From: Amaranthus tricolor | Taxonomy: Eukaryota; Streptophyta; Magnoliopsida; Caryophyllales; Amaranthaceae | Reading direction: 5' to 3' | Length of the DNA: 64,000 nucleotides | Assembly (NCBI RefSeq): GCF_026212465.1 | Contig: NC_080056.1 | Location: 23,892,811-23,956,810, forward strand | Shown: positions 1 through 41,424 of the stretch, piece by piece | Layout of the letters: each line of letters begins with the position of its first letter | How positions within the stretch are numbered: position 1 is the stretch's first letter | The notes under the pieces: generated by a model | What the model was told of the DNA's origin: nothing | The model's input: only the letters and a program-made list of their open reading frames with translations | Databases searched by the model: none | Program-made: the position numbers and the translations under genes

Positions 1-3000
1 TATTATTGTTTTGATATGGTTAGAATCAAAAAGATAGTTATATACTTGATATTACATGCTAAGTTGCGTTTTAAGGTTTTTTTTAGCGTTTTTAGTACTT
101 TGTCGTATAAACTGGTTCAAACTTGGTTTGTTTGCGACGAAAGTTGGCACACAACACCATTTGGTTTAATTTTTTTTGCTGAAATGGTTCGAATCAATAT
201 TACATGCTAAGTTGCGTTTTTGAGGTTGTTCAGAGTTTTTTGCACTTTCTCGCACAAAGTGGTTCAAACTTGTTTTGTTTGGCACGAAACTCTGCACACA
301 ACACTATTTGGTATATGTTATTGTGTTGAAATGGTTAAAATCAAAAAAGATAGTCATATGCTTCAAAAATTACGTTCTAAGTTTCGTTTTTAAGTTTTTT
401 TTGCATTATTCACTCTTCTCGCATAAAGTGGTTCAAACTTGGTTTTTGCCACAAAACTTGATACACAACATTATTTGGTATATTCTATTGTTTTGAAATG
501 GATAGAATCAAAAAATATAGTCATATGCTTGAAACTACGTGCAAAGTTACATTTTTGAAGTTTTTTTAGCATTTTTGGGACTTTTCTCGCATAAAGTGCT
601 TCAAACTTGGTTTCTTTGGCACAAAACTTGGCACATGATTCAATTTGTTATATATTATAGTGTTTAAATAGTTGGAATCGAAAATAATAGACATATGCAT
701 GAAATTACATGCGAAGTTGCATCTTTGACGTTGTATAGCATTTTTGGCACTTTCTCGCACAAAGTGGTTCAAACTTGGTTTGTCTACCATGAAACTTGGC
801 ACACAACACCATTTGGTATATTTTTTTGTGTTGAAATGGTTAAAATCAATAACAATAGTCATATGCATGAAAATACGTACAAAGTTGGGTTTTTGAGGTT
901 TTTTTGAGCATTTTTTACACTTTCTCGCATAAAGTGGTGCAAACTCGGTTTGTTTGGTATGAGACTTGGCACACCAACAATATTTTGTATATGTTATAAT
1001 TTTAAAATGTTTAGAATCAAAAACAATAGTCAAATGTTTGAAATTACGTGCGTTTTTGAGGTTTTTTTTAGTGTTTTTAGCACTTTCTCGAATAAAGTAG
1101 TTCAAACATGGTTTATTTATCACGAAACATGACACACAAACACTATTTGGTATACCTTTTTGTGTTGAATTGCGTAGACTAAAAACAGATAGTCATATGC
1201 TTGAAACTACATGCAAAGTTACGTTTTTGAAGTTTTTTTTAGCATTTTTGGAACTTTCTCGCATAAAGTGGTTCAAAACATTGTTTGTTTGGCACGAAAC
1301 TTAGCACACAATACAATTTGTTATATTTTATTGTGTTTAAATGGTTAGAATCGAAAACAATAGACATATGCATGAAATTACATGCGAAGTTGCGTTTTTG
1401 AGGTTGTTTAGCGTTTTTAGCACTTTCTCGCATAAAGTGTTTCAAACTTGGTTTACCTTCCACAAAACATGGTACACAACACTATTTGGTATATTCTATT
1501 ATTTTGAAATGGTTACTCAAAAAAGATAGTCATATGCTTGAAACTACGTGCAAGTTACATTTTTGAAGTTTTTTTAGCATTTTTTGGCACTTTCTCGCAT
1601 AAAGTGGTTCAAATTTGGTTTGTTTGGCACGAAACATGGCACACATTACAATTTATTATATGTTATTGTGTTGAAATGGTTAGAATCGAAAACAATAGAC
1701 ATAAGCTTGAAATTACATGCGAAGTTGCATTTTTGAGGTTGTTTAGCATTTTTGGCATTTTCTCGCATAAAGTGGTTCAAACTTGGTTTGTTTGGCACGA
1801 AACTCGGCACACAACATTATTTGGTATATTTTATTGCTATGAAATGGTTAGAATCAAAAAAGATAGTCATATGCTTGAAATTACGTGCTATGCTGCGGTT
1901 TTTGAGGTTTTTTTAGTGTTTTTAGCCATTTCTCGAATAAAGTGGTTCAAACTTAGTTTATTTGACGCAAAACATGGCACAGAACACTATTTGGTATACC
2001 TTATTGTGTGGAATTGGTTAGACTATAAAAATATAGTCATATAATTGAAACTACGTGCAAAGTTATTTTTTGAAGTTTCTTTAGCAATTTTTGCACTTTC
2101 TCACATAAAGTGGTTAAAACTTGGTTTGTTGGCGACGAAACTAGGCATACAAAACTATTTAGTATATATTATTGTGTTCAAAAGGTTATAATTATTATGA
2201 TTAGTCATGTGCTTGAAATTACATGCGAAGTTGCGTGTTTGAGGTTTTTTAGCTTTTTTGGCATTTTCTCGAATAAAGTGGTTCGAACTTGGTTGGTTTG
2301 GCACGAAACTCTGCACACAACATTATTTGGTATATGTTATTGGTTTGAAATGCTTGAAATCATAATAAATAGTCATATGCTGTAAATTACGTGCTAGGTT
2401 TTTTTTTTTGAGGTTTTTTTAGCGCTTTTGGTACTTTCTCGAATAAAGTGGTTCAAACTTAATTTATTTGACACAAAACAACGCACACAACACTATTTGG
2501 TATATGTTAATGTTTTGAAAAGGTTAGAATGAAAATAAATACTCAAATGCATGAAATTACGACCTAAGTTGCGTTTTTGAGTTTTTTTTAACGTTTTAGG
2601 CACTTTCTCGAATAATGTGGTTCAAACTTGGTTTGTTTAGCGCGAAAAAGGGCACACAAACCTATTTGGTATATTATTTTGTTGAAATTGTTAGACTCAA
2701 AAATGATAGTCATATGCTTGAATTTACGTGCTAAGTTATGTTTTTATGGTTTTTTTAGCGTTTGTAGCACTTTCTCGTACAAAGTGGTTCAAACATGGTT
2801 TATTTGCTACGAAACTAGGCATACACAACTATTTAGTATATGTTATTGCGTTTAAATAGTTAGAATTAGTAAAAATAGTCATAGGCTTGAAATTACGTGC
2901 TAAGGTTTCTTTTTAAGGTTTTTTTTAGCGTTTTTGGCACGTTATCGCACAAAGTAGTTCAAACTTTGTTTTTTTGGCACGAAACGAGGCATACAACACT

Positions 3001-3235
3001 ATTTTGTAAATATTATTGTGTTCAAATGTTTAGAATCAAAAAAGATAGTCATATGCTTGAGATTACGTGCTAAGTTGCGTTTTTAAGGTTTTTTTAGCGT
3101 TTTTTAGTACTTTCTCGCATAAAGTGGTTCAAACTTGGTTAGTTTGCCACTAAACTTGGAACACAACACTATTTGGTATATGTTATTGTGTTGAAATGGT
3201 TAGCAACAAAAAAATAATCATAGGCTTGAAATTAC
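1..3235 (+). repeat. HOR unit, partial (21-monomer type, variant A)
   Basis: Right part of a 21-monomer unit cut by the window edge. It contains two diagnostic short monomers: one missing about 22 bp after GGTTCGAATC (near 190-205), and one missing about 8 bp between ACGTGC and GTTTTTGAGG (near 1045-1055). Private variants include CAGAGTTTT at 231, ACGTTCTAAG near 372, TGCGTAGAC near 1170, GGTTACTCAAAA near 1510 and a TAAGCTTG variant near 1702. They reappear two units later rather than in the next unit. Confidence 0.85.
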
Positions 3236-6200
3236 GTGCTAAGTTGCGTTATTGAGGTTTTTTTAGCGTTTATGGAACTTCCTCGAATAAAGTGGTTCAA
3301 GCAAAGTTTGTTTGCCACAAAACTAGGAATACAAAACTATTTAGTGTATGTTATAGTGTTAAAATGGTTAGAATCAGTATCACTACTGATCTACTTGAAA
3401 TTACGTGCTAAGTTTCGTTTTTAAGGTTTTTTTTAGCGTTTTTGGCACTTTCTCGCACAAAGTGGTTCAAACATGTTTGTTTGGCACGAAACATGGCACA
3501 CAACTTTATTTGGTATATATTATTGTTTTGATATGGTTAGAATCAAAAAAGATAGTTATATACTTGATATTACATGCTAAGTTGCGTTTTAAGGTTTTTT
3601 TTAGCGTTTTTAGTACTTTGTCGTATAAACTGGTTCAAACTTGGTTTGTTTGCGACGAAAGTTGGCACACAACACCATTTGGTTTAATCTTTTTGCTGAA
3701 ATGGTTCGAATCAATATTACATGCTAAGTTGCGTTTTTGAGGTTGTTCAGCGTTTTTTGCACTTTCCTCGCACAAAGTGGTTCAAACTTGTTTTGTTTGG
3801 CACGAAACTCTGCACACAACACTATTTGGTATATGTTATTGTGTTGAAATGGTTAAAATCAAAAAAGATAGTCATATGCTTCAAAAATTACGTGCTAAGT
3901 TTCGTTTTTAAGTTTTTTTTTTGCATTATTCACTCTTCTCACATAAAGTGGTTCAAACTTGGTTTTTGCCACAAAACTTGATACACAACATTATTTGGTA
4001 TTTTCTATTGTTTTGAAATGGATAGAATCAAAAAATATAGTCATATGCTTGAAACTACGTGCAAAGTTACATTTTTGAAGTTTTTTTAGCATTTTTGGGA
4101 CTTTCTCGCATAAAGTGCTTCAAACTTGGTTTTTTTTGGCACGAAACTTGGCACATGATTCAATTTGTTATATATTATAGTGTTTAAATAGTTGGAATCG
4201 AAAATAATAGACATATGCATGAAATTACATGCGAAGTTGCATCTTTGACGTTGTATAGCATTTTTGGCACTTTCTCGCACAAAGTGGTTCAAACTTGGTT
4301 TGTCTACCATGAAACTTGGCACACAACACCATTTGGTATATTTTTTTGTGTTGAAATGGTTAAAATCAATAACAATAGTCATATGCATGAAAATACGTAC
4401 AAAGTTGGGTTTTTGAGGTTTTTTTGAACATTTTTTATACTTTCTCCGCATAAAGTGGTGCAAACTCGGTTTGTTTGGTATGAGACATGGCACACACAAC
4501 AATATTTTGTATATGTTATAATTTTAAAATGTTTAGAATCAAAAACAATAGTCATATGTTTGAAATTACGTGCGTTTTTGAGGGTTTTTTTTAGTGTTTT
4601 TAGCACTTTCTCGAATAAAGTAGTTCAAACATGGTTTATTTATCACGAAACATGACACACAACACTATTTGGTATACCTTTTTGTGTTGAATTGGGTAGA
4701 CTAAAAACAGATAGTCATATGCTTGAAACTACGTGCAAAGTTACGTTTTTGAAGTTTTTTTAGCATTTTTGGCACTTTCTCGCATAAAGTGGTTCAAACT
4801 TAGTTTGTTTGGACGAAACTTAGCACACAATACAATTTGTTATATTTTATTGTGTTTAAAATGGTTAGAATCGAAAACAATAGACATATGCATGAAATTA
4901 CATGCGAAGTTGCGTTTTTGAGGTTGTTTAGCGTTTTTAGCACTTTCTCGCATAAAGTGGTTCAAACTTGGTTTACTTCCACAAAACATGGTACACAACA
5001 CTATTTGGTATATTCTATTATTTTGAAATGGTTATACTCAAAAAAGATAGTCATATGCTTGAAACTACGTGCAAAGTTACATTTTGAAGTTTTTTTTAGC
5101 ATTTTTGGCACTTTCTCGCATAAAGTGGTTCAAATTTGGTTTGTTTGGCACGAAACATGGCACACATTACAATTTATTATATGTTATTGTGTTGAAATGG
5201 TTAGAATCGAAAACAATAGACATACGCTTGAAATTACATGCGAAGTTGCATTTTTGAGGTTGTTTAGCATTTTTGGCATTTTCTCGCATAAAGTGGTTCA
5301 AACTTGGTTTGTTTGGCACGAAACTCTGCACACAACATTATTTGGTATATTTTATTGCTATGAAATGGTTAGAATCAAAAAAAGATAGTCATATGCTTGA
5401 AATTACGTGCTATGCTGCGTTTTTGAGGTTTTTTTTAGTGTTTTTAGCCATTTCTCGAATAAAGTGGTTCAAACTTAGTTTATTTGACGCAAAACATGGC
5501 ACACAACACTATTTGGTATACCTTATTGTGTGGAATTGGTTAGACTATAAAAATATAGTCATATAATTGAAACTACGTGCAAAGTTATTTTTTGAAGTTT
5601 CTTTAGCAATTTTTGCACTTTCTCACATAAAGTGGTTAAAACTTGGTTTGTTGGCGACGAAACTAGGCATACAAAACTATTTAGTATATATTATTGTGTT
5701 CAAAAGGTTATAATTATTATGATTAGTCATGTGCTTGAAATTACATGCGAAGTTGCGTGTTTGAGGTTTTTTAGCTTTTTTGGGCATTTTCTCGAATAAA
5801 GTGGTTCGAACTTGGTTGGTTTGGCACGAAACTCTGCACACAACACTATTTGGTATATGTTATTGGTTTGAAATGCTTGAAATCATTATAAATAGTCATA
5901 TGCTGTAAATTACGTGCTAGGTTTTTTTTTTGAGGTTTTTTTAGCGCTTTTGGCACTTTCTCGAATAAAGTGGTTCAAACTTAATTTGTTTGACACAAAA
6001 CAACGCACACAACACTATTTGGTATATGTTAATGTTTTGAAAAGGTTAGAATGAAAATAAATACACAAATGCATGAAATTACGACCTAAGTTGCGTTTTT
6101 GAGTTTTTTTTAACGTTTTAGGCACTTTCTCGAATAATGTGGTTCAAACTTGGTTTGTTTAGCGCGAAAAAGGGCACACAAACCTATTTGGTATATATTA

Positions 6201-6759
6201 TTTTGTTGAAATTGTTAGACTCAAAAAAGATAGTCATATGCTTGAATTTACGTGCTAAGTTATGTTTTTATGGTTTTTTTAGCGTTTGTAGCACTTTCTC
6301 GTACAAAGTGGTTCAAACATGGTTTATTTGCTACGAAACTAGGCATACACAACTATTTAGTATATGTTATTGCGTTTAAATAGTTAGAATTAGTAACAAT
6401 AGTCATAGGCTTGAAATTACGTGCTAAGGTTCCTTTTTAAGGTTTTTTTTAGCGTTTTTGGCACGTTATCGCACAAAGTAGTTCAAACTTTGTTTTTTTG
6501 GAACGAAACGAGGCATACAACACTATTTTGTAAATATTATTGTGTTCAAATGTTTAGAATCAAAAAAGATAGTCATATGCTTGAGATTACGTGCTAAGTT
6601 GCGTTTTTAAGGTTTTTTTAGCGTTTTTAGTACTTTCTCGCATAAAGTGGTTCAAAACTTGGTTAGTTTGCCACTAAACTTGGCACACAACACTATTTGG
6701 TATATGTTATTGTGTTGAAATGGTTAGCAACAAAAAAATAATCATAGGCTTGAAATTAC
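3236..6759 (+). repeat. HOR unit, 21 monomers, 3524 bp
   Basis: Full-length unit from GCGTTATTGAGG anchor to anchor. It lacks the private variants of the preceding unit: it has CAGCGTTTT, ACGTGCTAAG, TGGGTAGAC, GGTTATACTC and ATACGCTTG at the matching positions. Single-base insertions occur in TTTCTCG motifs near 3772 and 4445. Confidence 0.88.
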
Positions 6760-9700
6760 GTGCTAAGTTGCGTTATTGAGGTTTTTTTAGCGTTTATGGA
6801 ACTTCCTCGAATAAAGTGGTTCAAGCAAAGTTTGTTTGCCACAAAACTAGGAATACAAAACTATTTAGTGTATGTTATAGTGTTAAAATGGTTAGAATCA
6901 GTATCACTACTGATCTACTTGAAATTACGTGCTAAGTTTCGTTTTTAAGGTTTTTTTTAGCGTTTTTGGCACTTTCTCGCACAAAGTGGTTCAAACATGT
7001 TTGTTTGGCACGAAACATGGCACACAACTTTATTTGGTATATATTATTGTTTTGATATGGTTAGAATCAAAAAAGATAGTTATATACTTGATATTACATG
7101 CTAAGTTGCGTTTTAAGGTTTTTTTTAGCGTTTTTAGTACTTTGTCGTATAAACTGGTTCAAACTTGGTTTGTTTGCGACGAAAGTTGGCACACAACACC
7201 ATTTGGTTTAATTTTTTTTGCTGAAATGGTTCGAATCAATATTACATGCTAAGTTGCGTTTTTGAGGTTGTTCAGAGTTTTTTGCACTTTCTCGCACAAA
7301 GTGGTTCAAACTTGTTTTGTTTGGCACGAAACTCTGCACACAACACTATTTGGTATATGTTATTGTGTTGAAATGGTTAAAATCAAAAAAGATAGTCATA
7401 TGCTTCAAAAATTACGTTCTAAGTTTCGTTTTTAAGTTTTTTTTTGCATTATTCACTCTTCTCGCATAAGTGGTTCAAACTTGGTTTTTGCCACAAAACT
7501 TGATACACAACATTATTTGGTATATTCTATTGTTTTGAAATGGATAGAATCAAAAAATATAGTCATATGCTTGAAACTACGTGCAAAGTTACATTTTTGA
7601 AGTTTTTTTAGCATTTTTGGGACTTTCTCGCATAAAGTGCTTCAAACTTGGTTTCTTTGGCACAAAACTTGGCACATGATTCAATTTGTTATATATTATA
7701 GTGTTTAAATAGTTGGAATCGAAAATAATAGACATATGCATGAAATTACATGCGAAGTTGCATCTTTGACGTTGTATAGCATTTTTGGCACTTTCTCGCA
7801 CAAAGTGGTTCAAAACTTGGTTTGTCTACCATGAAACTTGGCACACAACTCCATTTGGTATATTTTTTTGTGTTGAAATGGTTAAAATCAATAACAATAG
7901 TCATATGCATGAAAATACGTACAAAGTTGGGTTTTTGAGGTTTTTTGAGCATTTTTTACACTTTCTCGCATAAAGTGGTGCAAACTCGGTTTGTTTGGTA
8001 TGAGACTTGGCACACAACAATATTTTGTATATGTTATAATTTTAAAATGTTTAGAATCAAAAACAATAGTCATATGTTTGAAATTACGTGCGTTTTTGAG
8101 GTTTTTTTTTAGTGTTTTTAGCACTTTCTCGAATAAAGTAGTTCAAACATGGTTTATTTATCACGAAACATGACACACAACACTATTTGGTATACCTTTT
8201 TGTGTTGAATTGCGTAGACTAAAAACAGATAGTCATATGCTTGAAACTACATGCAAAGTTACGTTTTTGAAGTTTTTTTAGCATTTTTTGGAACTTTCTC
8301 GCATAAAGTGGTTCAAACATTGTTTGTTTGGCACGAAACTTAGCACACAATACAATTTGTTATATTTTATTGTGTTTAAATGGTTAGAATCGAAAACAAT
8401 AGACATATGCATGAAATTACATGCGAAGTTGCGTTTTTGAGGTTGTTTAGCGTTTTTAGCACTTTCTCGCATAAAGTGTTTTCAAACTTGTTTACTTCCA
8501 CAAAACATGGTACACAACACTATTTGGTATATTCTATTATTTTGAAATGGTTACTCAAAAAAGATAGTCATATGCTTGAAACTACGTGCAAAGTTACATT
8601 TTTGAAGTTTTTTTTTAGCATTTTTGGCACTTTCTCGCATAAAGTGGTTCAAATTTGGTTTGTTTGGCACGAAACATGGCACACATTACAATTTATTATA
8701 TGTTATTGTGTTGAAATGGTTAGAATCGAAAACAATAGAGATAAGCTTGAAATTACATGCGAAGTTGCATTTTTGAGGTTGTTTAGCATTTTTGGCATTT
8801 TCTCGCATAAAGTGGTTCAAACTTGGTTTGTTTGGCACGAAACTCTGCACACAACATTATTTGGTATATTTTATTGCTATGAAATGGTTAGAATCAAAAA
8901 AGATAGTCATATGCTTGAAATTACGTGCTATGCTGCGTTTTTGAGGTTTTTTTAGTGTTTTTAGCCATTTCTCGAATAAAGTGGTTCAAACTTAGTTTAT
9001 TTGACGCAAAACATGGCACACAACACTATTTGGTATACCTTATTGTGTGGAATTGGTTAGACTATAAAAATATAGTCATATAATTGAAACTACGTGCAAA
9101 GTTATTTTTTGAAGTTTCTTTAGCAATTTTTGCACTTTCTCACATAAAGTGGTTAAAACTTGGTTTGTTGGCGACGAAACTAGGCATACAAAACTATTTA
9201 GTATATATTATTGTGTTCAAAAGGTTATAATTATTATGATTAGTCATGTGCTTGAAATTACATGCGAAGTTGCGTGTTTGAGGTTTTTTAGCTTTTTTGG
9301 CATTTTCTCGAATAAAGTGGTTCGAACTTGGTTGGTTTGGCACGAAACTCTGCACACAACATTATTTGGTATATGTTATTGGTTTGAAATGCTTGAAATC
9401 ATAATAAATAGTCATATGCTGTAAATTACGTGCTAGGTTTTTTTTTTTGAGGTTTTTTTAGCGCTTTTGGTACTTTCTCGAATAAAGTGGTTCAAACTTA
9501 ATTTATTTGACACAAAACAACGCACACAACACTATTTGGTATATGTTAATGTTTTGAAAAGGTTAGAATGAAAATAAATACTCAAATGCATGAAATTACG
9601 ACCTAAGTTGCGTTTTTGAGTTTTTTTTTAACGTTTTAGGCACTTTCTCGAATAATGTGGTTCAAACTTGGTTTGTTTAGCGCGAAAAAGGGCACACAAA

Positions 9701-10276
9701 CCTATTTGGTATATATTATTTTGTTGAAATTGTTAGACTCAAAAAAGATAGTCATATGCTTGAATTTACGTGCTAAGTTATGTTTTTATGGTTTTTTTAG
9801 CGTTTGTAGCACTTTCTCGTACAAAGTGTTTCAAACATGGTTTATTTGCTACGAAACTAGGCATACACAACTATTTAGTATATGTTATTGCGTTTAAATA
9901 GTTAGAATTAGTAACAATAGTCATAGGCTTGAAATTACGTGCTAAGGTTCCTTTTAAAGGTTTTTTTTAGCGTTTTTGGCACGTTATCGCACAAAGTAGT
10001 TCAAACTTTGTTTTTTTGGCACGAAACGAGGCATACAACACTATTTTGTAAATATTATTGTGTTCAAATGTTTAGAATCAAAAAAGATAGTCATATGCTT
10101 GAGATTACGTGCTAAGTTGCGTTTTTAAGGTTTTTTTAGCGTTTTTAGTACTTTCTCGCATAAAGTGGTTCAAACTTGGTTAGTTTACCACTAAACTTGG
10201 CACACAACACTATATGGTATATGTTATTGTGTTGAAATGGTTAGCAACAAAAAAATAATCATAGGCTTGAAATTAC
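6760..10276 (+). repeat. HOR unit, 21 monomers, 3517 bp (variant A)
   Basis: Full-length unit sharing private variants with the leftmost partial unit: CAGAGTTTT at 7273, ACGTTCTAAG near 7411, TGCGTAGAC near 8212, GGTTACTCAAAA near 8550 and TAAGCTTG near 8742. The offset from the first unit is about 7042 bp, which is two units. Confidence 0.88.
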
Positions 10277-13200: not shown

Positions 13201-13786
13201 GGCACACAAACCTATTTGGTATATATTATTTTGTTGAAATTGTTAGACTCAAAAAAGATAGTCATATGCTTGAATTTACGTGCTAAGTTATGTTTTTATG
13301 GTTTTTTAGCGTTTGTAGCACTTTCCTCGTACAAAGTGGTTCAAACATGGTTTATTTGCTACGAAACTAGGCATACACAACTATTTAGTATATGTTATTG
13401 CGTTTAAATAGTTAGAATTAGTAACAATAGTCATAGGCTTGAAATTACGTGCTAAGGTTCCTTTTAAGGTTTTTTTTAGCGTTTTTGGCACGTTATCGCA
13501 CAAAGTAGTTCAAACTTTGTTTTTTTGGCACGAAACGAGGCATAAAACACTATTTTGTAATATTATTGTGTTCAAAATGTTAGAATCAAAAAAGATAGTC
13601 ATATGCTCGTGATTACGTGCTAAGTTGCGTTTTTAAAGGTTTTTTTAGCGGTTTTTAGTACTTTCTCGCATAAAGTGGTTCAAACTTGGTTAGTTTGCCA
13701 CTAAACTTGGCACACAACACTATTTGGTATATGTTATTGTGTTGAAATGGTTAGCAACAAAAAAATAATCATAGGCTTGAAATTAC
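10277..13786 (+). repeat. HOR unit, 21 monomers, 3510 bp
   Basis: Full-length unit. It carries GGCACGACACTTAGC near 11839, a variant otherwise seen only near 32441 in the last full unit. A 9-bp loss removes TTTATTTAT-like sequence near 11669. From about 11.6 kb onward it has many more single-base insertions and deletions than the earlier units. Confidence 0.86.
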
Positions 13787-20300: not shown

Positions 20301-20827
20301 TCATATGCTTGAATTTACGTGCTAAGTTATGTTTTTATGGTTTTTTTAGCGTTTGTAGCACTTTCTCGTACAAAGTGGTTCAAACATGGTTTATTTGCTA
20401 CGAAACTAGGCATACACAACTATTTAGTATATGTTATTGCGTTTAAATAGTTAGAATTAGTAACAATAGTCATAGGCTTGAAATTACGTGCTAAGGTTCC
20501 TTTTTAAGGTTTTTTTTAGCGTTTTTGGCACGTTATCGCACAAAGTAGTTCAAACTTTGTTTTTTTGGCACGAAACGAGGCATACAACACTATTTTGTAA
20601 ATATTATTGTGTTCAAATGTTTAGAATCAAAAAAGATAGTCATATGCTTGAGATTACGTGCTAAGTTGCGTTTTAAAGGTTTTTTTAGCGTTTTTAGTAC
20701 TTTCTCGCATAAAGTGGTTCAAACTTGGTTAGTTTACCACTAAACTTGGCACACAACACTATTTGGTATATGTTATTGTGGGTTGAAATGGTTAGCAACA
20801 AAAAAATAATCATAGGCTTGAAATTAC
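17310..20827 (+). repeat. HOR unit, 21 monomers, 3518 bp
   Basis: Full-length unit. The left part still has extra indels (TTCTCTCG near 17523, TTTCCTCG near 18178); the right part is clean. It is the last 21-monomer unit before the shortened block. The TTTGATGTTG variant (near 18320 and 19323) also occurs in the previous unit. Confidence 0.87.
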
Positions 20828-23336: not shown

Positions 23337-25848
23337 GTGCTAAGTTGCGTTATTGAGGTTTTTTTAGCGTTTATGGAACTTCCTCGAATAAAGTGGTTCA
23401 AGCAAAGTTTGTTTGCCACAAAACTAGGAATACAAAACTATTTAGTGTATGTTATAGTGTTAAAATGGTTAGAATCAGTATCACTACTGATCTACTTGAA
23501 ATTACGTGCTAAGTTTCGTTTTTAAGGTTTTTTTTAGCGTTTTTGGCACTTTCTCGCACAAAGTGGTTCAAACATGTTTGTTTGGCACGAAACATGGCAC
23601 ACAACTTTATTTGGTATATATTATTGTTTTGATATGGTTAGAATCAAAAAAGATAGTTATATACTTGATATTACATGCTAAGTTGCGTTTTAAGGTTTTT
23701 TTTTAGCGTTTTTAGTACTTTGTCGTATAAACTGGTTCAAACTTGGTTTGTTTGCGACGAAAGTTGGCACACAACACCATTTGGTTTAATTTTTTTTGCT
23801 GAAATGGTTCGAATCAATATTACATGCTAAGTTGCGTTTTTGAGGTTGTTCAGCGTTTTTTGCACTTTCTCGCACAAAGTGGTTCAAACTTGTTTTGTTT
23901 GGCACGAAACTTAGCACACAATACAATTTGTTATATTTTATTGTGTTTAAATGGTTAGAATCGAAAACAATAGACATATGCATGAAATTACATGCGAAGT
24001 TGCGTTTTTGAGGTTGTTTAGCGTTTTTAGCACTTTCTCGCATAAAGTGTTTCAAACTTGGTTTACTTCCACAAAACATGGTACACAACACTATTTGGTA
24101 TATTCTATTATTTTGAAATGGTTATACTCAAAAAAGATAGTCATATGCTTGAAACTACGTGCAAAGTTACATTTTTGAAGTTTTTTTTAGCATTTTTGGC
24201 ACTTTCTCGCATAAAGTGGTTCAAATTTGGTTTGTTTGGCACGAAACATGGCACACATTACAATTTATTATATGTTATTGTGTTGAAATGGTTAGAATCG
24301 AAAACAATAGACATACGCTTGAAATTACATGCGAAGTTGCATTTTTGAGGTTGTTTAGCATTTGTGGCATTTTCTCGCATAAAGTGGTTCAAACTTGGTT
24401 TGTTTGGCACGAAACTCTGCACACAACATTATTTGGTATATTTTATTGCTATGAAATGGTTAGAATCAAAAAAGATAGTCATATGCTTGAAATTACGTGC
24501 TATGCTGCGTTTTTGAGGTTTTTTTAGTGTTTTTAGCCATTTCTCGAATAAAGTGGTTCAAACTTAGTTTATTTGACGCAAAACATGGCACACAACACTA
24601 TTTGGTATACCTTATTGTGTGGAATTGGTTAGACTATAAAAATATAGTCATATAATTGAAACTACGTGCAAAGTTATTTTTTGAAGTTTCTTTAGCAATT
24701 TTCGCACTTTCTCACATAAAGTGGTTAAAACTTGGTTTGTTGGCGACGAAACTAGGCATACAGAACTATTTAGTATATATTATTGTGTTCAAAAGGTTAT
24801 AATTATTATGATTAGTCATGTGCTTGAAATTACATGCGAAGTTGCGTGTTTGAGGTTTTTTAGCTTTTTTGGCATTTTCTCGAATAAAGTGGTTCGAACT
24901 TGGTTGGTTTGGCACGAAACTCTGCACACAACACTATTTGGTATATGTTATTGGTTTGAAATGCTTGAAATCATAATAAATAGTCATATGCTGTAAGTTA
25001 CGTGCTAGGTTTTTTTTTTGAGGTTTTTTTAGCGCTTTTGGTACTTTCTCGAATAAAGTGGTTCAAACTTAATTTGTTTGACACAAAACAACGCACACAA
25101 CACTATTTGGTATATGTTAATGTTTTGAAAAGGTTAGAATGAAAATAAATACTCAAATGCATGAAATTACGACCTAAGTTGCGTTGTTTGAGTTTTTTTT
25201 AACGTTTTAGGCACTTTCTCGAATAATGTGGTTCAAACTTGGTTTGTTTAGCGCGAAAAAGGGCACACAAACCTATTTGGTATATATTATTTTGTTGAAA
25301 TTGTTAGACTCAAAAAAGATAGTCATATGCTTGAATTTACGTGCTAAGTTATGTTTTTATGGTTTTTTTTAGCGTTTGTAGCACTTTCTCGTACAAAGTG
25401 GTTCAAACATGGTTTATTTGCTACGAAACTAGGCATACACAACTATTTAGTATATGTTATTGCGTTTAAATAGTTAGAATTAGTAACAATAGTCATAGGC
25501 TTGAAATTACGTGCTAAGGTTCCTTTTTAAGGTTTTTTTTAGCGTTTTTGGCACGTTATCGCACAAAGTAGTTCAAACTTTGTTTTTTTGGCACGAAACG
25601 AGGCATACAACACTATTTTGTAAATATTATTGTGTTCAAATGTTTAGAATCAAAAAGATAGTCATATGCTTGAGATTACGTGCTAATTTGCGTTGTTTAA
25701 GGTTTTTTTAGCGTTTTTAGTACTTTCTCGCATAAAGTGGTTCAAACTTGGTTAGTTTGCCACTAAACTTGGCACACAACACTATTTGGTATATGTTATT
25801 GTGTTGAAATGGTTAGCAACAAAAAAATAATCATAGGCTTGAAATTAC
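23337..25848 (+). repeat. HOR unit, 15 monomers, 2512 bp
   Basis: Shortened unit with the same junction at about 23911. It carries GCATTTGTGGCATT near 24359, shared with the unit two steps downstream. Its right end has GCTAATTTGCG near 25683, shared with the final full unit near 34221. Confidence 0.88.
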
Positions 25849-28358
25849 GTGCTAAGTTGCGTTATTGAGGTTTTTTTAGCGTTTATGGAACTTCCTCGAA
25901 TAAAGTCGTTCAAGCATGTTTTGTTTGCCACAAAACTAGGAATACAAAACTATTTAGTGTATGTTATAGTGTTAAAATGGTTAGAATCAGTATCACTACT
26001 GATCTACTTGAAATTACGTGCTACGTTTCATTTTTAAGGTTTTTTTTAGCATTTTTGGCACTTTCTCGCACAAAGTGGTTCAAACATGTTTGTTTGGCAC
26101 GAAACATGGCACACAACTTTATTTGGTATATATTATTGTTTTGATATGGTTAGAATCAAAAAAGATAGTCATATACTTGATATTACGTGCTAAGTTGCGT
26201 TTTTAACGTTTTTTTTAGCGTTTTTAGTACTTTGTCGTATAAACTGGTTCAAACTTGGTTTGTTTGCGACGAAAGTTGGCACACAACACCATTTGGTATA
26301 ATTTTTTTTGCTGAAATGGTTCGAATCGAAATTACATGCTCAGTTGCGTTTTTGAGGTTGTTCAGCGTTTTTTGCACTTTCTCGCACAAAGTGGTTCAAA
26401 CTTGTTTTGTTTGGCACGAAACTTAGCACACAATACAATTTGTTATATTTTATTGTGTTTAAATGGTTAGAATCGAAAACAATAGACATATGCATGAAAT
26501 TACATGCGAAGTTGCGTTTTTGAGGTTGTTTAGCGTTTTTAGCACTTTCTCGCATAAAGTGTTTCAAACTTGGTTTACTTCCACAAAACATGGTACACAA
26601 CACTATTTGGTATATTCTATTATTTTGAAATGGTTATACTCAAAAAAGATAGTCATATGCTTGAAACTATGTGCAAAGTTACATTTTTGAAGTTTTTTTT
26701 AGCATTTTTGGCACTTTCTCGCATAAAGTGGTTCAAATTTGGTTTGTTTGGCACGAAACATGGCACACATTACAATTTATTATATGTTATTGTGTTGAAA
26801 TGGTTAGAATCGAAAACAATAGACATACGCTTGAAATTACATGCGAAGTTGCATTTTTGAGGTTGTTTAGCATTTTTGGCATTTTCTCGCATAAAGTGGT
26901 TCAAACTTGGTTTGTTTGGCACGAAACTCTGCACACAACATTATTTGGTATATTTTATTGCTATGAAATGGTTAGAATCAAAAAAGATAGTCATATGCTT
27001 GAAATTACGTGCTATGCTGCGTTTTTGAGGTTTTTTTAGTGTTTTTAGCCATTTCTCGAATAAAGTGGTTCAAACTTAGTTTATTTGACGCAAAACATGG
27101 CACACAACACTATTTGGTATACCTTATTGTGTGGAATTGGTTAGACTATAAAAATATAGTCATATAATTGAAACTACGTGCAAAGTTAGTTTTTGAAGTT
27201 TCTTTAGCAATTTTTGCACTTTCTCACATAAAGTGGTTAAAACTTGGTTTGTTGGCGACGAAACTAGGCATACAAAACTATTTAGTATATATTATTGTGT
27301 TCAAAAGGTTATAATTATTATGATTAGTCATGTGCTTGAAATTACATGCGAAGTTGCGTGTTTGAGGTTTTTTAGCTTTTTTGGCATTTTCTCGAATAAA
27401 GTGGTGCGAACTTGGTTGGTTTGGCACGAAACTCTGCACACAACACTATTTGGTATATGTTATTGGTTTGAAATGCTTGAAATCATAATAAATAGTCATA
27501 TGCTGTAAATTACGTGCTAGGTTTTTTTTTTGAGGTTTTTTTAGCGCTTTTGGCACTTTCTCGAATAAAGTGGTTCAAACTTAATTTGTTTGACACAAAA
27601 CAACGCACACAACACTATTTGGTATATGTTAATGTTTTGAAAAGGTTATAATGAAAATAAATACTCAAATGCATGAAATTACGACCTAAGTTGCGTTTTT
27701 GAGTTTTTTTTAACGTTTTAGGCACTTTCTCGAATAATGTGGTTCAAACTTGGTTTGTTTAGCGCGAAAAAGGGCACACAAACCTATTTGGTATATATTA
27801 TTTTTTTGAAATTGTTAGACTCAAAAAAGATAGTCATATGCTTGAATTTACGTGCTAAGTTATGTTTTTATGGTTTTTTTAGCGTTTGTAGCACTTTCTC
27901 GTACAAAGTGGTTCAAACATGGTTTATTTGCTACGAAACTAGGCATACACAACTATTTAGTATATGTTATTGCGTTTAAATAGTTAGAATTAGTAACAAT
28001 AGTCATAGGCTTGAAATTACGTGCTAAGGTTCCTTTTTAAGGTTTTTTTTAGCGTTTTTGGCACGTTATCGCACAAAGTAGTTCAAACTTTTTTTTTTGG
28101 CACGAAACGAGGCATACAACACTATTTTGTAAATATTATTGTGTTCAAATGTTTAGAATCAAAAAAGATAGTCATATGCTTGAGATTACGTGCTAAGTTG
28201 CGTTTTTAAGGTTTTTTTTAGCGTTTTTAGTACTTTCTCGCATAAAGTGGTTCAAACTTGGTTAGTTTACCACTAAACTTGGCACACAACACTATTTGGT
28301 ATATGTTATTGTGTTGAAATGGTTAGCAACAAAAAAATAATCATAGGCTTGAAATTAC
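25849..28358 (+). repeat. HOR unit, 15 monomers, 2510 bp, mosaic
   Basis: Shortened unit with the junction at about 26423. Its first half kilobase carries variants (AAAGTCGTTCAAGCATG, GCTACGTTTCATTTTT, ACATGCTCAGTTGCG) that match 34386-34880 and not the adjacent units. Confidence 0.88.
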
Positions 28359-30871
28359 GTGCTAAGTTGCGTTATTGAGGTTTTTTTAGCGTTTATGGAA
28401 CTTCCTCGAATAAAGTGGTTCAAGCAAAGTTTGTTTGCCACAAAACTAGGAATACAAAACTATTTAGTGTATGTTATAGTGTTAAAATGGTTAGAATCAG
28501 TATCACTACTGATCTACTTGAAATTACGTGCTAAGTTTCGTTTTTAAGGTTTTTTTTTAGCGTTTTTGGCACTTTCTCGCACAAAGTGGTTCAAACATGT
28601 TTGTTTGGCACGAAACATGGCACACAACTTTATTTGGTATATATTATTGTTTTGATATGGTTAGAATCAAAAAAGATAGTTATATACTTGATATTACATG
28701 CTAAGTTGCGTTTTAAGGTTTTTTTTAGCGTTTTTAGTACTTTGTCGTATAAACTGGTTCAAACTTGGTTTGTTTGCGACGAAAGTTGGCACACAACACC
28801 ATTTGGTTTAATTTTTTTTGCTGAAATGGTTCGAATCAATATTACATGCTAAGTTGCGTTTTTGAGGTTGTTCAGCGTTTTTTGCACTTTCTCGCACAAA
28901 GTGGTTCAAACTTGTTTTGTTTGGCACGAAACTTAGCACACAATACAATTTGTTATATTTTATTGTGTTTAAATGGTTAGAATCGAAAACAATAGACATA
29001 TGCATGAAATTACATGCGAAGTTACGTTTTTGAGGTTGTTTAGCGTTTTTAGCACTTTCTCGCATAAAGTGTTTCAAACTTGGTTTACTTCCACAAAACA
29101 TGGTACACAACACTATTTGGTATATTCTATTATTTTGAAATGGTTATACTCAAAAAAGATAGTCATATGCTTGAAACTACGTGCAAAGTTACATTTTTGA
29201 AGTTTTTTTTAGCATTTTTGGCACTTTCTCGCATAAAGTGGTTCAAATTTGGTTTGTTTGGCACGAAACATGGCACACATTACAATTTATTATATGTTAT
29301 TGTGTTGAAATGGTTAGAATCGAAAACAATAGACATACGCTTGAAATTACATGCGAAGTTGCATTTTTGAGGTTGTTTAGCATTTGTGGCATTTTCTCGC
29401 ATAAAGTGGTTCAAACTTGGTTTGTTTGGCACGAAACTCTGCACACAACATTATTTGGTATATTTTATTGCTATGAAATGGTTAGAATCAAAAAAGATAG
29501 TCATATGCTTGAAATTACGTGCTATGCTGCGTTTTTGAGGTTTTTTTAGTGTTTTTAGCCATTTCTCGAATAAAGTGGTTCAAACTTAGTTTATTTGACG
29601 CAAAACATGGCACACAACACTATTTGGTATACCTTATTGTGTGGAATTGGTTAGACTATAAAAATATAGTCATATAATTGAAACTACGTGCAAAGTTAGT
29701 TTTTGAAGTTTCTTTAGCAATTTTTGCACTTTCTCACATAAAGTGGTTAAAACTTGGTTTGTTGGCGACGAAACTAGGCATACAAAACTATTTAGTATAT
29801 ATTATTGTGTTCAAAAGGTTATAATTATTATGATTAGTCATGTGCTTGAAATTACATGCGAAGTTGCGTGTTTGAGGTTTTTTAGCTTTTTTGGCATTTT
29901 CTCGAATAAAGTGGTGCGAACTTGGTTGGTTTGGCACGAAACTCTGCACACAACACTATTTGGTATATGTTATTGGTTTGAAATGCTTGAAATCATAATA
30001 AATAGTCATATGCTGTAAATTACGTGCTAGGTTTTTTTTTTGAGGTTTTTTTTAGCGCTTTTGGCACTTTCTCGAATAAAGTGGTTCAAACTTAATTTGT
30101 TTGACACAAAACAACGCACACAACACTATTTGGTATATGTTAATGTTTTGAAAAGGTTAGAATGAAAATAAATACTCAAATGCATGAAATTACGACCTAA
30201 GTTGCGTTTTTGAGTTTTTTTTAACGTTTTAGGCACTTTCTCGAATAATGTGGTTCAAACTTGGTTTGTTTAGCGCGAAAAAGGGCACACAAACCTATTT
30301 GGTATATATTATTTTTTTGAAATTGTTAGACTCAAAAAAGATAGTCATATGCTTGAATTTACGTGCTAAGTTATGTTTTTATGGTTTTTTTTAGCGTTTG
30401 TAGCACTTTCTCGTACAAAGTGGTTCAAACATGGTTTATTTGCTACGAAACTAGGCATACACAACTATTTAGTATATGTTATTGCGTTTAAATAGTTAGA
30501 ATTAGTAACAATAGTCATAGGCTTGAAATTACGTGCTAAGGTTCCTTTTTAAGGTTTTTTTTTAGCGTTTTTGGCACGTTATCGCACAAAGTAGTTCAAA
30601 CTTTGTTTTTTTGGCACGAAACGAGGCATACAACACTATTTTGTAAATATTATTGTGTTCAAATGTTTAGAATCAAAAAAGATAGTCATATGCTTGAGAT
30701 TACGTGCTAAGTTGCGTTTTTAAGGTTTTTTTAGCGTTTTTAGTACTTTCTCGCATAAAGTGGTTCAAACTTGGTTAGTTTACCACTAAACTTGGCACAC
30801 AACACTATTTGGTATATGTTATTGTGTTGAAATGGTTAGCAACAAAAAAATAATCATAGGCTTGAAATTAC
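28359..30871 (+). repeat. HOR unit, 15 monomers, 2513 bp
   Basis: Last shortened unit, with the junction at about 28933. It shares GCATTTGTGGCATT (near 29381) with the unit about 5022 bp upstream. It shares GTTAGTTTTTGAAG and GTGGTGCGAAC (near 29696 and 29911) with the unit about 2.5 kb upstream. Confidence 0.88.
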
Positions 30872-33800
30872 GTGCTAAGTTGCGTTATTGAGGTTTTTTT
30901 AGCGTTTATGGAACTTCCTCGAATAAAGTGGTTCAAGCAAAGTTTGTTTGCCACAAAACTAGGAATACAAAACTATTTAGTGTATGTTATAGTGTTAAAA
31001 TGGTTAGAATCAGTATCACTACTGATCTACTTGAAATTACGTGCTAAGTTTCGTTTTTAAGGTTTTTTTTAGCGTTTTTGGCACTTTCTCGCACAAAGTG
31101 GTTCAAACATGTTTGTTTGGCACGAAACATGGCACACAACTTTATTTGGTATATATTATTGTTTTGATATGGTTAGAATCAAAAAAAATAGTTATATACT
31201 TGATATTACATGCTAAGTTGCGTTTTAAGGTTTTTTTTAGCGTTTTTAGTACTTTGTCGTATAAACTGATTCAAACTTGGTTTGTTTGCGACGAAAGTTG
31301 GCACACAACACCATTTGGTTTAATTTTTTTTGCTGAAATGGTTCGAATCAATATTACATGCTAAGTTGCGTTTTTGAGGTTGTTCAGCGTTTTTTGCACT
31401 TTCTCGCACAAAGTGGTTCAAACTTGTTTTGTTTGGCACGAAACTCTGCACACAACACTATTTGGTATATGTTATCGTGTTTAAATGGTTAAAATCAAAA
31501 AAGATAGTCATATGCTTCAAAAATTACGTGCTAAGTTTCGTTTTAAAGTTTTTTTTTTGCATTATTCACTCTTCTCGCATAAAGTGGTTCAAACTTGGTT
31601 TTTGCCACAAAACTTGATACACAACATTATTTGGTATATTCTATTGGTTTGAAATGGATAGAATCAAAAAATATAGTCATATGCTTGAAACTTCGTGCAA
31701 AGTTACATTTTTGAAGTTTTTTTAGCATTTTTGGACTTTCTCGCATAAAGTGCTTCAAACTTGGTTTCTTTGGCACGAAACTTGGCACATGATTAAATTT
31801 GTTATATATTATAGTGTTTAAATAGTTGGAATCGAAAATAATAGACATATGCATGAAATTACATGCGAAGTTGCATCTTTGACGTTGTATAGCATTTTTG
31901 GCACTTTCTCGCACAAAGTGGTTCAAACTTGCTTAGTCTACCATGAAACTTGGCACACAACACCATTTGGTATATTTTTTTGTGTTGAAATGGTTAAAAT
32001 CAATAACAATAGTCATATGCATGAAAATACGTACAAAGTTGGGTTTTTGAGGTTTTTTGAGCATTTTTTACACTTTCTCGCATAAAGTGGTGCAAACTCG
32101 GTTTGTTTGGTATGAGACTTGGCACACAACAATATTTTGTATATGTTATAATTTTAAAATGTTTAGAATCAAAAACAATAGTCATATGTTTGAAATTACG
32201 TGCGTTTTTGAGGTTTTTTTTAGTGTTTTTAGCACTTTCTCGAATAAAGTAGTTCAAACATGGTTTATTTATCACGAAACATGACACACAACACTATTTG
32301 GTATACCTTTTTGTGTTGAATTGGGTAGACTAAAAACAGATAGTCATATGCTTGAAACTACGTGCAAAGTTACGTTTTTGAAGTTTTTTTAGCATTTTTG
32401 GCACTTTCTCGCATAAAGTGGTTCAAACTTAGTTTGTTTGGCACGACACTTAGCACACAATACAATTTGTTATATTTTATTGTGTTTAAATGGTTAGAAT
32501 CGAAAACAATAGACATATGCATGAAATTACATGCGAAGTTGCGTTTTTGAGGTTGTTTAGCATTTTTAGCACTTTCTCGCATAAAGTGTTTCAAACTTGG
32601 TTTACTTCCACAAAACAAGGTACACAACACTATTTGGTATATTCTATTATTTTGAAATGGTTATACTCAAAAAAGATAGTCATATGCTTGAAACTATGTG
32701 CAATGTTACATTTTTGAAGTTTTTTTTAGCATTTTTGGCACTTTCTCGCATAAAGTGGTTCAAATTTGGTTTGTTTGGCACGAAACATGGCACACATTAC
32801 AATTTATTATATGTTATTGTGTTGAAATGGTTAGAATCGAAAACAATAGACATACGCTTGAAATTACATGCGAAGTTGCATTTTTGAGGTTGTTTAGCAT
32901 TTTTGGCATTTTCTCGCATAAAGTGGTTCAAACTTGGTTTGTTTGGCACGAAACTCTGCACACAACATTATTTGGTATATTTTATTGCTATGAAATGGTT
33001 AGAATCAAAAAAGATAGTCATATGCTTGAAATTACGTGCTATGCTGCGTTTTTGAGGTTTTTTTAGTGTTTTTAGCCATTTCTCGAATAAAGTGGTTCAA
33101 ACTTAGTTTATTTGACGCAAAACATGGCACACAACACTATTTGGTATACCTTATTGTGTGGAATTGGTTAGACTATAAAAATATAGTCATATAATTGAAA
33201 CTACGTGCAAAGTTATTTTTTGAAGTTTCTTTAGCAATTTTCGCACTTTCTCACATAAAGTGGTTAAAACTTGGTTTGTTGGCGACGAAACTAGGCATAC
33301 AAAACTATTTAGTATATATTATTGTGTTCAAAAGGTTATAATTATTATGATTAGTCATGTGCTTGAAATTACATGCGAAGTTGCGTGTTTGAGGTTTTTT
33401 AGCTTTTTTGGCATTTTCTCGAATAAAGTGGTTCGAACTTGGTTGGTTTGGCACGAAACTCTGCACACAACACTATTTGGTATATGTTATTGGTTTGAAA
33501 TGCTTGAAATCATAATAAATAGTCATATGCTGTAAGTTACGTGCTAGGTTTTTTTTTTGAGGTTTTTTTAGCGCTTTTGGTACTTTCTCGAATAAAGTGG
33601 TTCAAACTTAATTTGTTTGACACAAAACAACGCACACAACACTATTTGGTATATGTTAATGTTTTGAAAAGGTTAGAATGAAAATAAATACTCAAATGCA
33701 TGAAATTACGACCTAAGTTGCGTTTTTGAGTTTTTTTTAACGTTTTAGGCACTTTCTCGAATAATGTTGTTCAAACTTGGTTTGTTTAGCGCGAAAAAGG

Positions 33801-34385
33801 GCACACAAACCTATTTGGTATATATTATTTTGTTGAAATTGTTAGACTCAAAAAAGATAGTCATATGCTTGAATTTACGTGCTAAGTTATGTTTTTATGG
33901 TTTTTTTAGCGTTTGTAGCACTTTCTCGTACAAAGTGGTTCAAACATGGTTTATTTGCTACGAAACTAGGCATACACAACTATTTAGTATATGTTATTGC
34001 GTTTAAATAGTTAGAATTAGTAACAATAGTCATAGGCTTGAAATTACGTGCTAAGGTTCCTTTTTAAGGTTTTTTTTAGCGTTTTTGGCACGTTATCGCA
34101 CAAAGTAGTTCAAACTTTGTTTTTTTGGCACGAAACGAGGCATACAACACTATTTTGTAAATATTATTGTGTTCAAATGTTTAGAATCAAAAAAGATAGT
34201 CATATGCTTGAGATTACGTGCTAATTTGCGTTTTTAAGGTTTTTTTAGCGTTTTTAGTACTTTCTCGCATAAAGTGGTTCAAACTTGGTTAGTTTGCCAC
34301 TAAACTTGGCACACAACACTATTTGGTATATGTTATTGTGTTGAAATGGTTAGCAACAAAAAAATAATCATAGGCTTGAAATTAC
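30872..34385 (+). repeat. HOR unit, 21 monomers, 3514 bp
   Basis: The full 21-monomer form returns after the shortened block. At the deletion site (about 31443) the normal CTCTGCACAC continuation is present, and the six monomers missing from the previous four units follow. It shares GGCACGACACTTAGC (near 32441) with the unit at 10277. Confidence 0.88.
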
Positions 34386-35110
34386 GTGCTAAGTTGCGTT
34401 ATTGAGGTTTTTTTAGCGTTTATGGAACTTCCTCGAATAAAGTCGTTCAAGCATGTTTTGTTTGCCACAAAACTAGGAATACAAAACTATTTAGTGTATG
34501 TTATAGTGTTAAAATGGTTAGAATCAGTATCACTACTGATCTACTTGAAATTACGTGCTACGTTTCATTTTTAAGGTTTTTTTTAGCATTTTTGGCACTT
34601 TCTCGCACAAAGTGGTTCAAACATGTTTGTTTGGCACGAAACATGGCACACAACTTTATTTGGTATATATTATTGTTTTGATATGGTTAGAATCAAAAAA
34701 GATAGTCATATACTTGATATTACGTGCTAAGTTGCGTTTTTAACGTTTTTTTAGCGTTTTTAGTACTTTGTCGTATAAACTGGTTCAAACTTGGTTTGTT
34801 TGCGACGAAAGTTGGCACACAACACCATTTGGTATAATTTTTTTTGCTGAAATGGTTCGAATCGAAATTACATGCTCAGTTGCGTTTTTGAGGTTGTTCA
34901 GCGTTTTTTGCACTTTCTCGCACAAAGTGGTTCAAACTTGTTTTGTTTGGCACGAAACTCTGCACACAACACTATTTGGTATATGTTATTGTGTTGAAAT
35001 GGTTAAAATCAAAAAAGATAGTCATATGCTTGAAATTACGTGCTAAGTTTCGTTTTTAAGTTTTTTTTTTTGCATTATTAGCTCTTCTCGCATAAAGTGG
35101 TTCAAACTTG
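34386..35110 (+). repeat. HOR array edge, partial unit
   Basis: The last recognisable HOR order: anchor monomer, then the next monomers up to the CATTATT...CTCTTCTCG monomer near 35073. The following monomer (from about 35115, with ACTTGTCACTCAACACC) no longer matches the expected HOR position, so regular order ends here. Confidence 0.78.
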
Positions 35111-39763: not shown

Positions 39764-39771
39764 ACAATTGT
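39764..39771. repeat. Left target-site duplication of hAT element
   Basis: ACAATTGT, one base different from the right copy ACAATAGT. The right copy matches the undisturbed satellite. Confidence 0.8.
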
Positions 39772-41416: not shown

Positions 41417-41424
41417 ACAATAGT
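41417..41424. repeat. Right target-site duplication of hAT element
   Basis: ACAATAGT, identical to the normal satellite sequence; the satellite monomer resumes directly after it. Confidence 0.8.

What the first reader, a model, noticed from the sequence alone, without database searches (positions are those of the whole stretch)
1..35110. Twenty-one-monomer higher-order repeat in a plant satellite
Seen: 168-169-bp monomers arranged in a fixed order of 21 that repeats every 3.51-3.52 kb, with nearly identical units and clearly different neighbouring monomers. Known: long, regular HORs typify human alpha satellite; many plant centromeres show only weak or short HORs. Inference: this is the homogenised core, or its edge, of an active or recent centromere.
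Basis: partly seen in the sequence, partly recalled or inferred. Interest (0 to 1): 0.88.

Follow-up and report, generated by a model that had tools for sequence, protein, structure and literature searches.

The report
Amaranth satellite with 21-unit super-repeats
In the first 35 kb of this stretch, likely from a vegetable amaranth, a DNA unit of about 169 bases repeats in a fixed order of 21 variants (15 in four copies), and the array is likely a flanking or displaced piece of a centromere region; whether it works as a centromere is untested.

Summary
Window 3-45562 is head-to-tail ~169-bp satellite with one 1.6-kb insertion. Window 20-35003 is a higher-order repeat (HOR) of 21 monomer classes: six 21-mers, four 15-mers (monomers 3-8 missing), one 21-mer and a broken copy. 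So the "fixed order of 21" holds for 7 of 11 full units. All four 15-mers share one monomer-2/8 fusion with an 18-bp crossover interval.

The genome matches the published Amaranthus tricolor assembly (exact scaffold N50). The monomer consensus is 87% identical to the published A. hypochondriacus centromeric repeat. The window is one block of a C10 mosaic that also holds 24-, 11-, 8-, 7- and 6-mer HORs; C15 has a 13-mer.

The centromere inference stays open: no CENH3 data, a dispersed family, and a published "126-bp" centromere unit for this species. A 42-bp satellite with that period (3 x 42) forms large blocks elsewhere on C1, C10 and C15. I favour a pericentromeric or displaced ex-centromeric array. 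Long, chromosome-specific plant HORs are already in print, so this is a new, well-resolved member of a known kind. Part of the array appears to be assembled twice.

The parts
20..21129 (+). HOR units H1-H6, 21-mers of 3511-3524 bp
   Evidence: monomer phasing and clustering; H1-H4 seem also present at the end of the upstream contig
21130..31172 (+). HOR units H7-H10, 15-mer variants of 2508-2512 bp lacking monomers 3-8
31173..34686 (+). HOR unit H11, 21-mer of 3514 bp
34687..35124 (+). broken last HOR copy: monomers 1 and 2 (about 96% to their classes) and a decaying monomer 3 (87%); right edge of the HOR
188..334 (+). monomer 2 of H1, a short monomer (147-148 bp) that recurs in each HOR unit
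21385..21402 (+). 18-bp crossover interval of the monomer 2/8 fusion in H7 (the same fusion starts near 23894, 26406 and 28916 in H8-H10)
35125..45562 (+). diverged satellite without HOR order, broken by the insertion below; relic block duplication at offset 7 (monomers at 37138-37800 and 38227-38904, pairs 87.5-93.5%)
39772..41416 (.). non-satellite insertion with terminal inverted repeats (15 of 16 bases) and an 8-bp target duplication (7 of 8); hAT-like by recalled criteria
55184..55675 (+). intact open reading frame (163 aa) for a plant C2H2 zinc-finger protein (TAC1-like and SUPERMAN-like names among hits)
   Evidence: two Pfam C2H2 models match at E about 1e-4, below their curated cut-offs
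58401..61702 (-). broken frames read as Copia-type retrotransposon remnants; RVT_2 found in 58729-59295, no Pfam match in two other frames scanned
   Evidence: extent inferred

Best explanation
Window 20-35003 is a 21-monomer HOR array of the Amaranthus 169-bp satellite whose four 15-mer units all carry the same monomer-2/8 fusion, likely made by one unequal exchange that was then copied in tandem, and the array is likely pericentromeric or displaced ex-centromeric DNA rather than the present kinetochore core. Shown: the monomer order, the shared fusion, the mosaic of other HOR families on the same chromosome, and the separate 13-mer on C15. Inferred: unequal exchange or break-induced replication duplicates and deletes whole monomers in register and homogenises neighbours, so each chromosome evolves its own HORs, while unhomogenised edges decay into plain monomers. 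Inferred: 169-bp monomers with 17 helical turns would rotationally phase nucleosomes, whether CENH3 or ordinary heterochromatin. Untested: that a 42-bp satellite now holds the core position and the 169-bp family was pushed outward.
For: HOR anatomy. 15-mer fusion: in H7, 43 of 43 informative sites left of the breakpoint match monomer 2 and 7 of 7 right of it match monomer 8, with an 18-bp crossover interval; H8-H10 switch at the same place, and a 43-base string across the fusion occurs exactly four times in the window. A like event on C15: left of the breakpoint 22 sites match monomer 8 and 0 match monomer 13, right of it 19 match 13 and 0 match 8, 10-bp interval. Exchange between units: 141 of 465 informative site pairs fail the four-gamete test, and 15-mer H8 is closest to 21-mer H11, 99.64%. 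Mosaic of HOR families on C10 and a 13-mer on C15. WW dinucleotide power peaks at 17 cycles per monomer in all 4 class groups tested (at most 2 of 5000 block permutations). Edge monomers decay. The 169-bp family is dispersed, and a 42-bp satellite lies at C10 27.5-29.3 Mb, C15 23.3-23.8 Mb and C1 20.11-20.95 Mb. On C1 its first exact match lies about 2 kb after a 169-bp run. A later paper says A. tricolor chromosome 10 appears telocentric (passage), which fits a core at the C10 end if the numbering is the same.
Against: No CENH3, FISH, Hi-C or recombination data were available, so the centromere could still be on the 169-bp arrays. The 42-bp satellite also occurs at 29 Mb on C1, so it is not one block per chromosome. 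I equate it with the published 126-bp unit by its period only; the published sequence was not seen. The four 15-mers share no biallelic point variant exclusive to them, which 'one deletion, then tandem copying' would favour. The 21-mer's left edge and one F11b junction are not clean two-monomer fusions. Assembly gaps, an inverted contig and overlapping contig ends flank the array.
Confidence: 0.5

Rival explanations
1. The array is part of the active C10 centromere: CENH3 nucleosomes sit on the 169-bp HORs, and the 42-bp blocks are ordinary heterochromatin.
For: The 169-bp monomer is the putative centromeric repeat of A. hypochondriacus, said to align with the presumed, gene-poor centromere locations. 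C10 holds the largest 169-bp cluster that I read, within 23.64-24.29 Mb, with several HORs of 95-100% within-class identity. CENH3 is said to associate with conserved HOR arrays in Pennisetum.
Against: The family is dispersed over C1 and C10. An intact reading frame of a plant transcription-factor type lies about 20 kb from the HOR. The A. tricolor paper places centromeres on a 126-bp unit. Non-centromeric arrays with HORs and no CENH3 exist in poplar.
Confidence: 0.3
2. The array is dispersed, knob-like or interstitial satellite heterochromatin that never carried a centromere; the HORs reflect local recombination only.
For: 169-bp matches lie at many places on C1 and in C10 samples. Poplar shows HORs in arrays without CENH3.
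Against: The same family is the dominant putative centromeric repeat of a congener, and on C1 a 169-bp run borders the 42-bp block.
Confidence: 0.17
3. The HOR pattern, or the 15-mer variants, are assembly artefacts.
For: N gaps of 100, 100 and 5791 bases lie nearby. A 47.5-kb contig is an inverted near-copy of DNA to its left, and the upstream contig end repeats window units 1-4.
Against: Units differ from each other by point variants. The upstream contig carries the same 21-mer beyond the overlap. HORs of other lengths occur elsewhere on C10 and on C15.
Confidence: 0.03

Closest known systems
169-bp major centromeric repeat of Amaranthus hypochondriacus (PMC5577786; passages seen)
   Same: Monomer length 169 bp; 143 of 164 aligned bases identical to a window-derived consensus, alignment score 213 against a maximum of 29 in 200 shuffles.
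   Different: That paper's text holds no 'higher-order', 'higher order', 'HOR' or CENH3. Individual HOR monomers are only 70-84% identical to it.
Human alpha-satellite HORs and cascading HORs (PMC8997354, PMC11050224; passages seen)
   Same: Long HORs of ~170-bp monomers that differ between chromosomes, shorter deletion variants, decayed monomeric edges; the neighbouring C10 24-mer re-uses monomer classes.
   Different: No CENP-B box above chance. The 21-mer block is about 54 kb if the contig ends overlap, against megabase arrays in human. Sequence relatedness was not tested.
CentP HORs of Pennisetum purpureum (PMC12933667; passages seen)
   Same: Chromosome-specific plant HORs; largest block reported 24 monomers, 3744 bp.
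   Different: Different monomer length (156 bp for that block), with CENH3 data there. The passages seen do not say whether the 24-monomer block is a regular multi-copy unit.
Maize CEN10 CentC HORs and monomer loss (PMC4806543; passages seen)
   Same: A deletion through 28 identical bases leaves a chimeric monomer, the same kind of event as the 2/8 fusion here.
   Different: One monomer lost there; six lost here, and the variant is present in four tandem copies.
Switchgrass and sorghum HORs (PMC4053949; passages seen)
   Same: Plant HORs; those of switchgrass include a truncated monomer.
   Different: Units of two to about seven monomers, seen in single reads.

Membership tests
Higher-order repeat (HOR) array | Distinct monomer classes recurring in a fixed order over several units | tested here: met
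   21 classes; 7 units of 21 and 4 of 15 in the window
Higher-order repeat (HOR) array | Units much more alike than neighbouring monomers | tested here: met
   98.4-99.6% between units; adjacent monomers mean 77%
Amaranthus 169-bp centromeric satellite | 169-bp monomer with sequence similarity to the published repeat | tested here: met
   143 of 164 aligned bases, score 213 against 29 for the best of 200 shuffles
Amaranthus 169-bp centromeric satellite | Very high copy number in the genome | tested here: met
   27,643 exact matches of one 24-base motif, 0 in the reversed control; rough estimate 43 Mb
[quoted passage not shown]
   Scattered matches on C1 and C10 besides a large cluster on C10; lists are capped and no recombination map was available
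Active centromere | CENH3 nucleosomes on the array | not testable with these tools
   no chromatin data
Active centromere | Primary-constriction FISH signal | not testable with these tools
   no cytology
Active centromere | Matches the centromere repeat published for this species (126-bp unit; itself without CENH3 data) | tested here: not met
   Period here is 169 bp; a satellite of period 42/84/126 lies elsewhere on C10, at 27.5-29.3 Mb
Active centromere | Centromeric (CRM-type) retrotransposons in the array | not tested
   Only Copia-type domains were seen in the few frames scanned; no systematic search was made
Primate alpha satellite | CENP-B box | tested here: not met
   0 sites with all 9 essential bases and 2 with 8, against 0.1 and 2.0 per shuffle
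Cascading HOR (as defined in PMC11050224) | Unit with more than one copy of some monomer classes | tested here: not met
   The window's 21 classes are distinct at the 10% cut; the neighbouring C10 24-mer does meet it (11+10+3 monomers, two full units read)

The most novel reading that the evidence does not exclude
Amaranthus tricolor is caught part-way through a centromere-satellite take-over: a 42-bp satellite, itself in a ~1091-bp HOR, has seized the chromosome cores, while the genus's older 169-bp centromeric satellite survives beside and beyond it as human-like, chromosome-specific HORs of 6 to 24 monomers.
Probability: 0.33. Interest if true: 0.75.

Novelty: new member of a known kind. 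Interest (0 to 1): 0.5.

Why it matters
Long regular HORs are often treated as a primate speciality. A compact plant chromosome region that shows a mosaic of HOR families from 6- to 24-mers, with deletion junctions resolved to 10-18 bp, lets models of HOR birth (unequal exchange, break-induced replication, end joining) be tested outside animals. If the 42-bp satellite has displaced the 169-bp one, two Amaranthus species give a before-and-after pair for centromere turnover. The published centromere assignments of A. tricolor (126-bp unit) and A. hypochondriacus (169-bp unit) differ, and one CENH3 experiment could settle the matter.

Tried and rejected
CENP-B-box search: nothing above chance. 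A clade of 15-mers by point variants was expected and not found. RNA families in a GC-rich sample at C10 24.5 Mb: no match. A dimer (A/B) organisation of the whole 21-mer: rejected, offsets 1-10 are alike (77-79%); instead four XY dimers (monomers 4-5, 8-9, 10-11, 13-14) stand out, 2 of 2000 permutations reaching them. The idea that every HOR carries one truncated monomer is only partly right: short classes occur in F21 (147 b), F11a (119), F6 (117) and C15 (154), but F8's shortest is 160 b and F11b has an enlarged 239-b class. Clean fusions at every irregular junction: not so; the 21-mer's left edge (m8 to m19) and the F11b junction at 23782687 fall at a monomer boundary of my phasing or are unclear, while the F11b junction at 23791328 is a fusion with one odd site. 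Two Arabidopsis HOR papers were not held. A right flank that is 'the chromosome arm' was rejected: satellite of the same family returns, inverted, at 24.23-24.29 Mb.

Not claimed: that amaranth HORs are absent from print. Searches for Amaranthus with 'higher-order repeat' (2 papers; passages of PMC11656428 seen, off topic; PMC13081366 seen only in listings) and Amaranthus with CENH3 (9 papers, listing only) found nothing on it in the held open-access library, which lacks most subscription papers.
Full report
OBSERVATION. Wrap-around alignment of a monomer consensus to the + strand traced 273 monomer starts in window 3-45562, about ten of which fall in the non-satellite insertion at 39772-41416. 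Average-linkage clustering at 10% gave a regular class string: 1-21 six times, then 1,2,9-21 four times, then 1-21, then 1,2, then monomers that nearly all stand alone. Unit lengths are 3511-3524 bp for 21-mers and 2508-2512 bp for 15-mers; unit-to-unit identity over ungapped columns is 98.4-99.6%; monomers of the same class average 98.1%, of different classes 78%. Its claim of a constant 21 is not: 4 of 11 full units are 15-mers.

THE 15-MER EVENT. Monomer 2 of the 15-mers is a fusion. In H7, left of the breakpoint 43 of 43 informative sites match monomer 2 and right of it 7 of 7 match monomer 8; the parents are identical over the 18-bp crossover interval. H8-H10 switch at the same place (alignment), and a 43-base string across the fusion occurs exactly four times in the window, once in each 15-mer. 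One event is the simplest origin. Point variants do not group the 15-mers: the closest pair of units is the 15-mer H8 with the 21-mer H11 (99.64%), no biallelic variant is exclusive to the four, and 141 of 465 pairs of informative sites fail the four-gamete test. I read this as later exchange or conversion between units; recurrent mutation and assembly error may contribute (54 of 79 gaps examined between the duplicated contig ends lie at homopolymers).

ORIGIN OF THE 21-MER. Class consensus comparison shows four related adjacent pairs, monomers 4-5, 8-9, 10-11 and 13-14 (2 of 2000 permutations reach this), so the unit likely grew by internal duplication of a dimer. Class 19 is the class nearest to the published A. 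hypochondriacus repeat (83%) and the best HOR match of 39 of 53 edge monomers, the insertion's rows left out.

WHERE IT LIES. The whole genome answered late: the window is G000:C10:23892811-23956810 in an assembly of 519,850,330 bases and 45 contigs. I read the lengths of 22 of the 45 contigs (20, C10 and C15): C1-C17 are 20-45 Mb and the five others 12.5-127.5 kb. C8 is 31,692,477 bases, exactly the scaffold N50 printed for Amaranthus tricolor cv. Red; the paper's 17 chromosomes and 'longest 45 Mb' also fit. Its printed total, 520,084,113, differs slightly. Other signs agree: the window's zinc-finger protein has its best outside hit in A. hypochondriacus (60%), then Chenopodium quinoa (45%), and the satellite matches the A. 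hypochondriacus repeat. The species name is an inference, but a strong one.

SURROUNDINGS ON C10. The 21-mer also occupies the upstream contig, from 23806544 to 23839419; all 21 matches of 92% or more to a 400-bp HOR probe are on C10, 9 upstream and 12 in the window (only 40 of 7398 candidates were scored). The last four upstream units align to window units 1-4 with 6 mismatches and 78 gap openings over 14,021 columns by BLAST, while the other registers listed have 0.5-1.0% mismatches; MAFFT gives 31 mismatches and 80 gap columns for the same stretch. So the contig ends probably overlap, and the whole 21-mer block is then about 54 kb with 12 21-mers and 4 15-mers. Between the two contigs the scaffold places a 47.5-kb contig that is an inverted near-copy of 23.732-23.780 Mb: 96.8% over 44,358 columns by BLAST; 517 mismatches by MAFFT, 410 of them in the first 7.5 kb, plus about 1.2 kb of indel. 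It may be a second haplotype, a false duplicate or real. To the left come irregular satellite, an 11-mer (1938 b), more irregular satellite, a 6-mer (961 b), another 11-mer (1793 b), an 8-mer (1341 b) and a 24-mer of about 4038 b that re-uses classes (11+10+3; two full units read); satellite is seen to 23.643 Mb (capped list). To the right, inverted, a 7-mer of ~1184 b lies at 24.268-24.273 Mb, with further matches from 24.230 to 24.292 Mb. C15 at 19.989-20.005 Mb has a 13-mer (2175 b) with one 8-mer copy, made by a fusion of monomers 8 and 13 (left: 22 sites for 8, 0 for 13; right: 19 for 13, 0 for 8).

RESULTS AGAINST A SIMPLE CENTROMERE READING. A 24-base motif of the family has 27,643 exact matches and none in the reversed control; the places listed (a capped list, all on C1) are scattered from 4.5 to 23 Mb. 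Another probe found matches on many contigs. Among 40 samples of 600 bases from C10, 37 were not all N; 3 of 37 hold the 169-bp satellite (9.8, 21.0, 25.9 Mb) and 2 of 37 show a 42-bp period (28.0, 28.7 Mb). Finer samples find the 42-bp satellite at 5 of 12 further C10 places (27.5-29.3 Mb) and at 2 of 8 C15 places (23.3, 23.8 Mb), and the 169-bp satellite at 1 of 12 and 1 of 8. A 29-base motif of it has 286,745 exact matches, none in the control; the first on C1 is at 20,109,827, just beyond a 169-bp run whose last listed match is at 20,107,735. Of 20 C1 samples 4 were all N; 6 of 16 hold the 42-bp satellite (five at 20.25-20.95 Mb and one at 29 Mb) and 1 of 16 the 169-bp one. A part of the listed C1 positions recurs at 1091 bp, near 26 x 42. 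The A. tricolor paper reports a 126-bp unit as the centromere repeat, longest array 3.12 Mb, from Tandem Repeats Finder with a size cut-off, and says that all chromosomes contained centromeres; 126 = 3 x 42, and I take the two to be the same, without having seen the published sequence. A later paper says that A. tricolor chromosome 10 appears telocentric; whether its number 10 is C10 was not tested.

INTERPRETATION. The HOR is genuine and its units are still nearly identical, so a homogenising process likely acted recently. By analogy with layered human arrays (passages of PMC8997354) it would be centromeric or ex-centromeric, but poplar arrays without CENH3 also form HORs (passages of PMC12046899). 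Helical-scale WW periodicity of 17 cycles per monomer is the strongest harmonic in all four class groups tested (at most 2 of 5000 permutations each); the groups are homologous, so this is one fact rather than four. It predicts rotational nucleosome phasing, untested.

LITERATURE STANDING. In the passages that I saw, plant HORs include chromosome-specific ones with a largest block of 24 monomers in Pennisetum purpureum and a maize CentC monomer loss through 28 identical bases leaving a chimeric monomer. The Arabidopsis papers that I looked for are not held. So the kind is known; what seems new is the resolved mosaic in Amaranthus. HORs are not mentioned in the A. tricolor and A. hypochondriacus genome papers under the words searched; the A. 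tuberculatus paper speaks of 'high-order repeats' from identity heat maps.

Noticed in passing
55184-55675 (+): Intact 163-aa C2H2 zinc-finger reading frame about 20 kb from the HOR edge, between two satellite domains of C10; 60% identical to its best outside hit, an A. hypochondriacus protein.
   Followed up: partly
39772-41416: hAT-like insertion (label recalled) inside the satellite with an 8-bp target duplication and GC-rich CCGGGT-type subterminal repeats.
   Followed up: partly
L009:4356-7551 (C10:23744356-23747551): 3.2-kb insertion in the satellite that encodes part of NADH dehydrogenase 5 (Pfam NADH5_C), so likely mitochondrial DNA.
   Followed up: partly
L027 and start of L026 (C10:23710919-23721516): Copia-type element with a further 562-aa frame (Pfam Transposase_32) inserted in the satellite.
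   Followed up: no
C10:23839520-23887019 (L018-L023): 47.5-kb contig that is an inverted near-copy of C10:23732510-23780009, bounded by N gaps; possible haplotig or false duplication.
   Followed up: partly
L091, L092 and C1:20109827 onward: 42-bp satellite with 286,745 exact motif matches and a ~1091-bp higher-order period; candidate for the published 126-bp centromere unit.
   Followed up: partly
47342-47462 and 48190-49314: Perfect (TAG)40 microsatellite near a 1.1-kb AT-rich, TATTAG-type minisatellite.
   Followed up: no
L071 (C10:24500001-24500600): GC-rich (53%) sample with a 181-bp direct repeat; no Rfam match.
   Followed up: no
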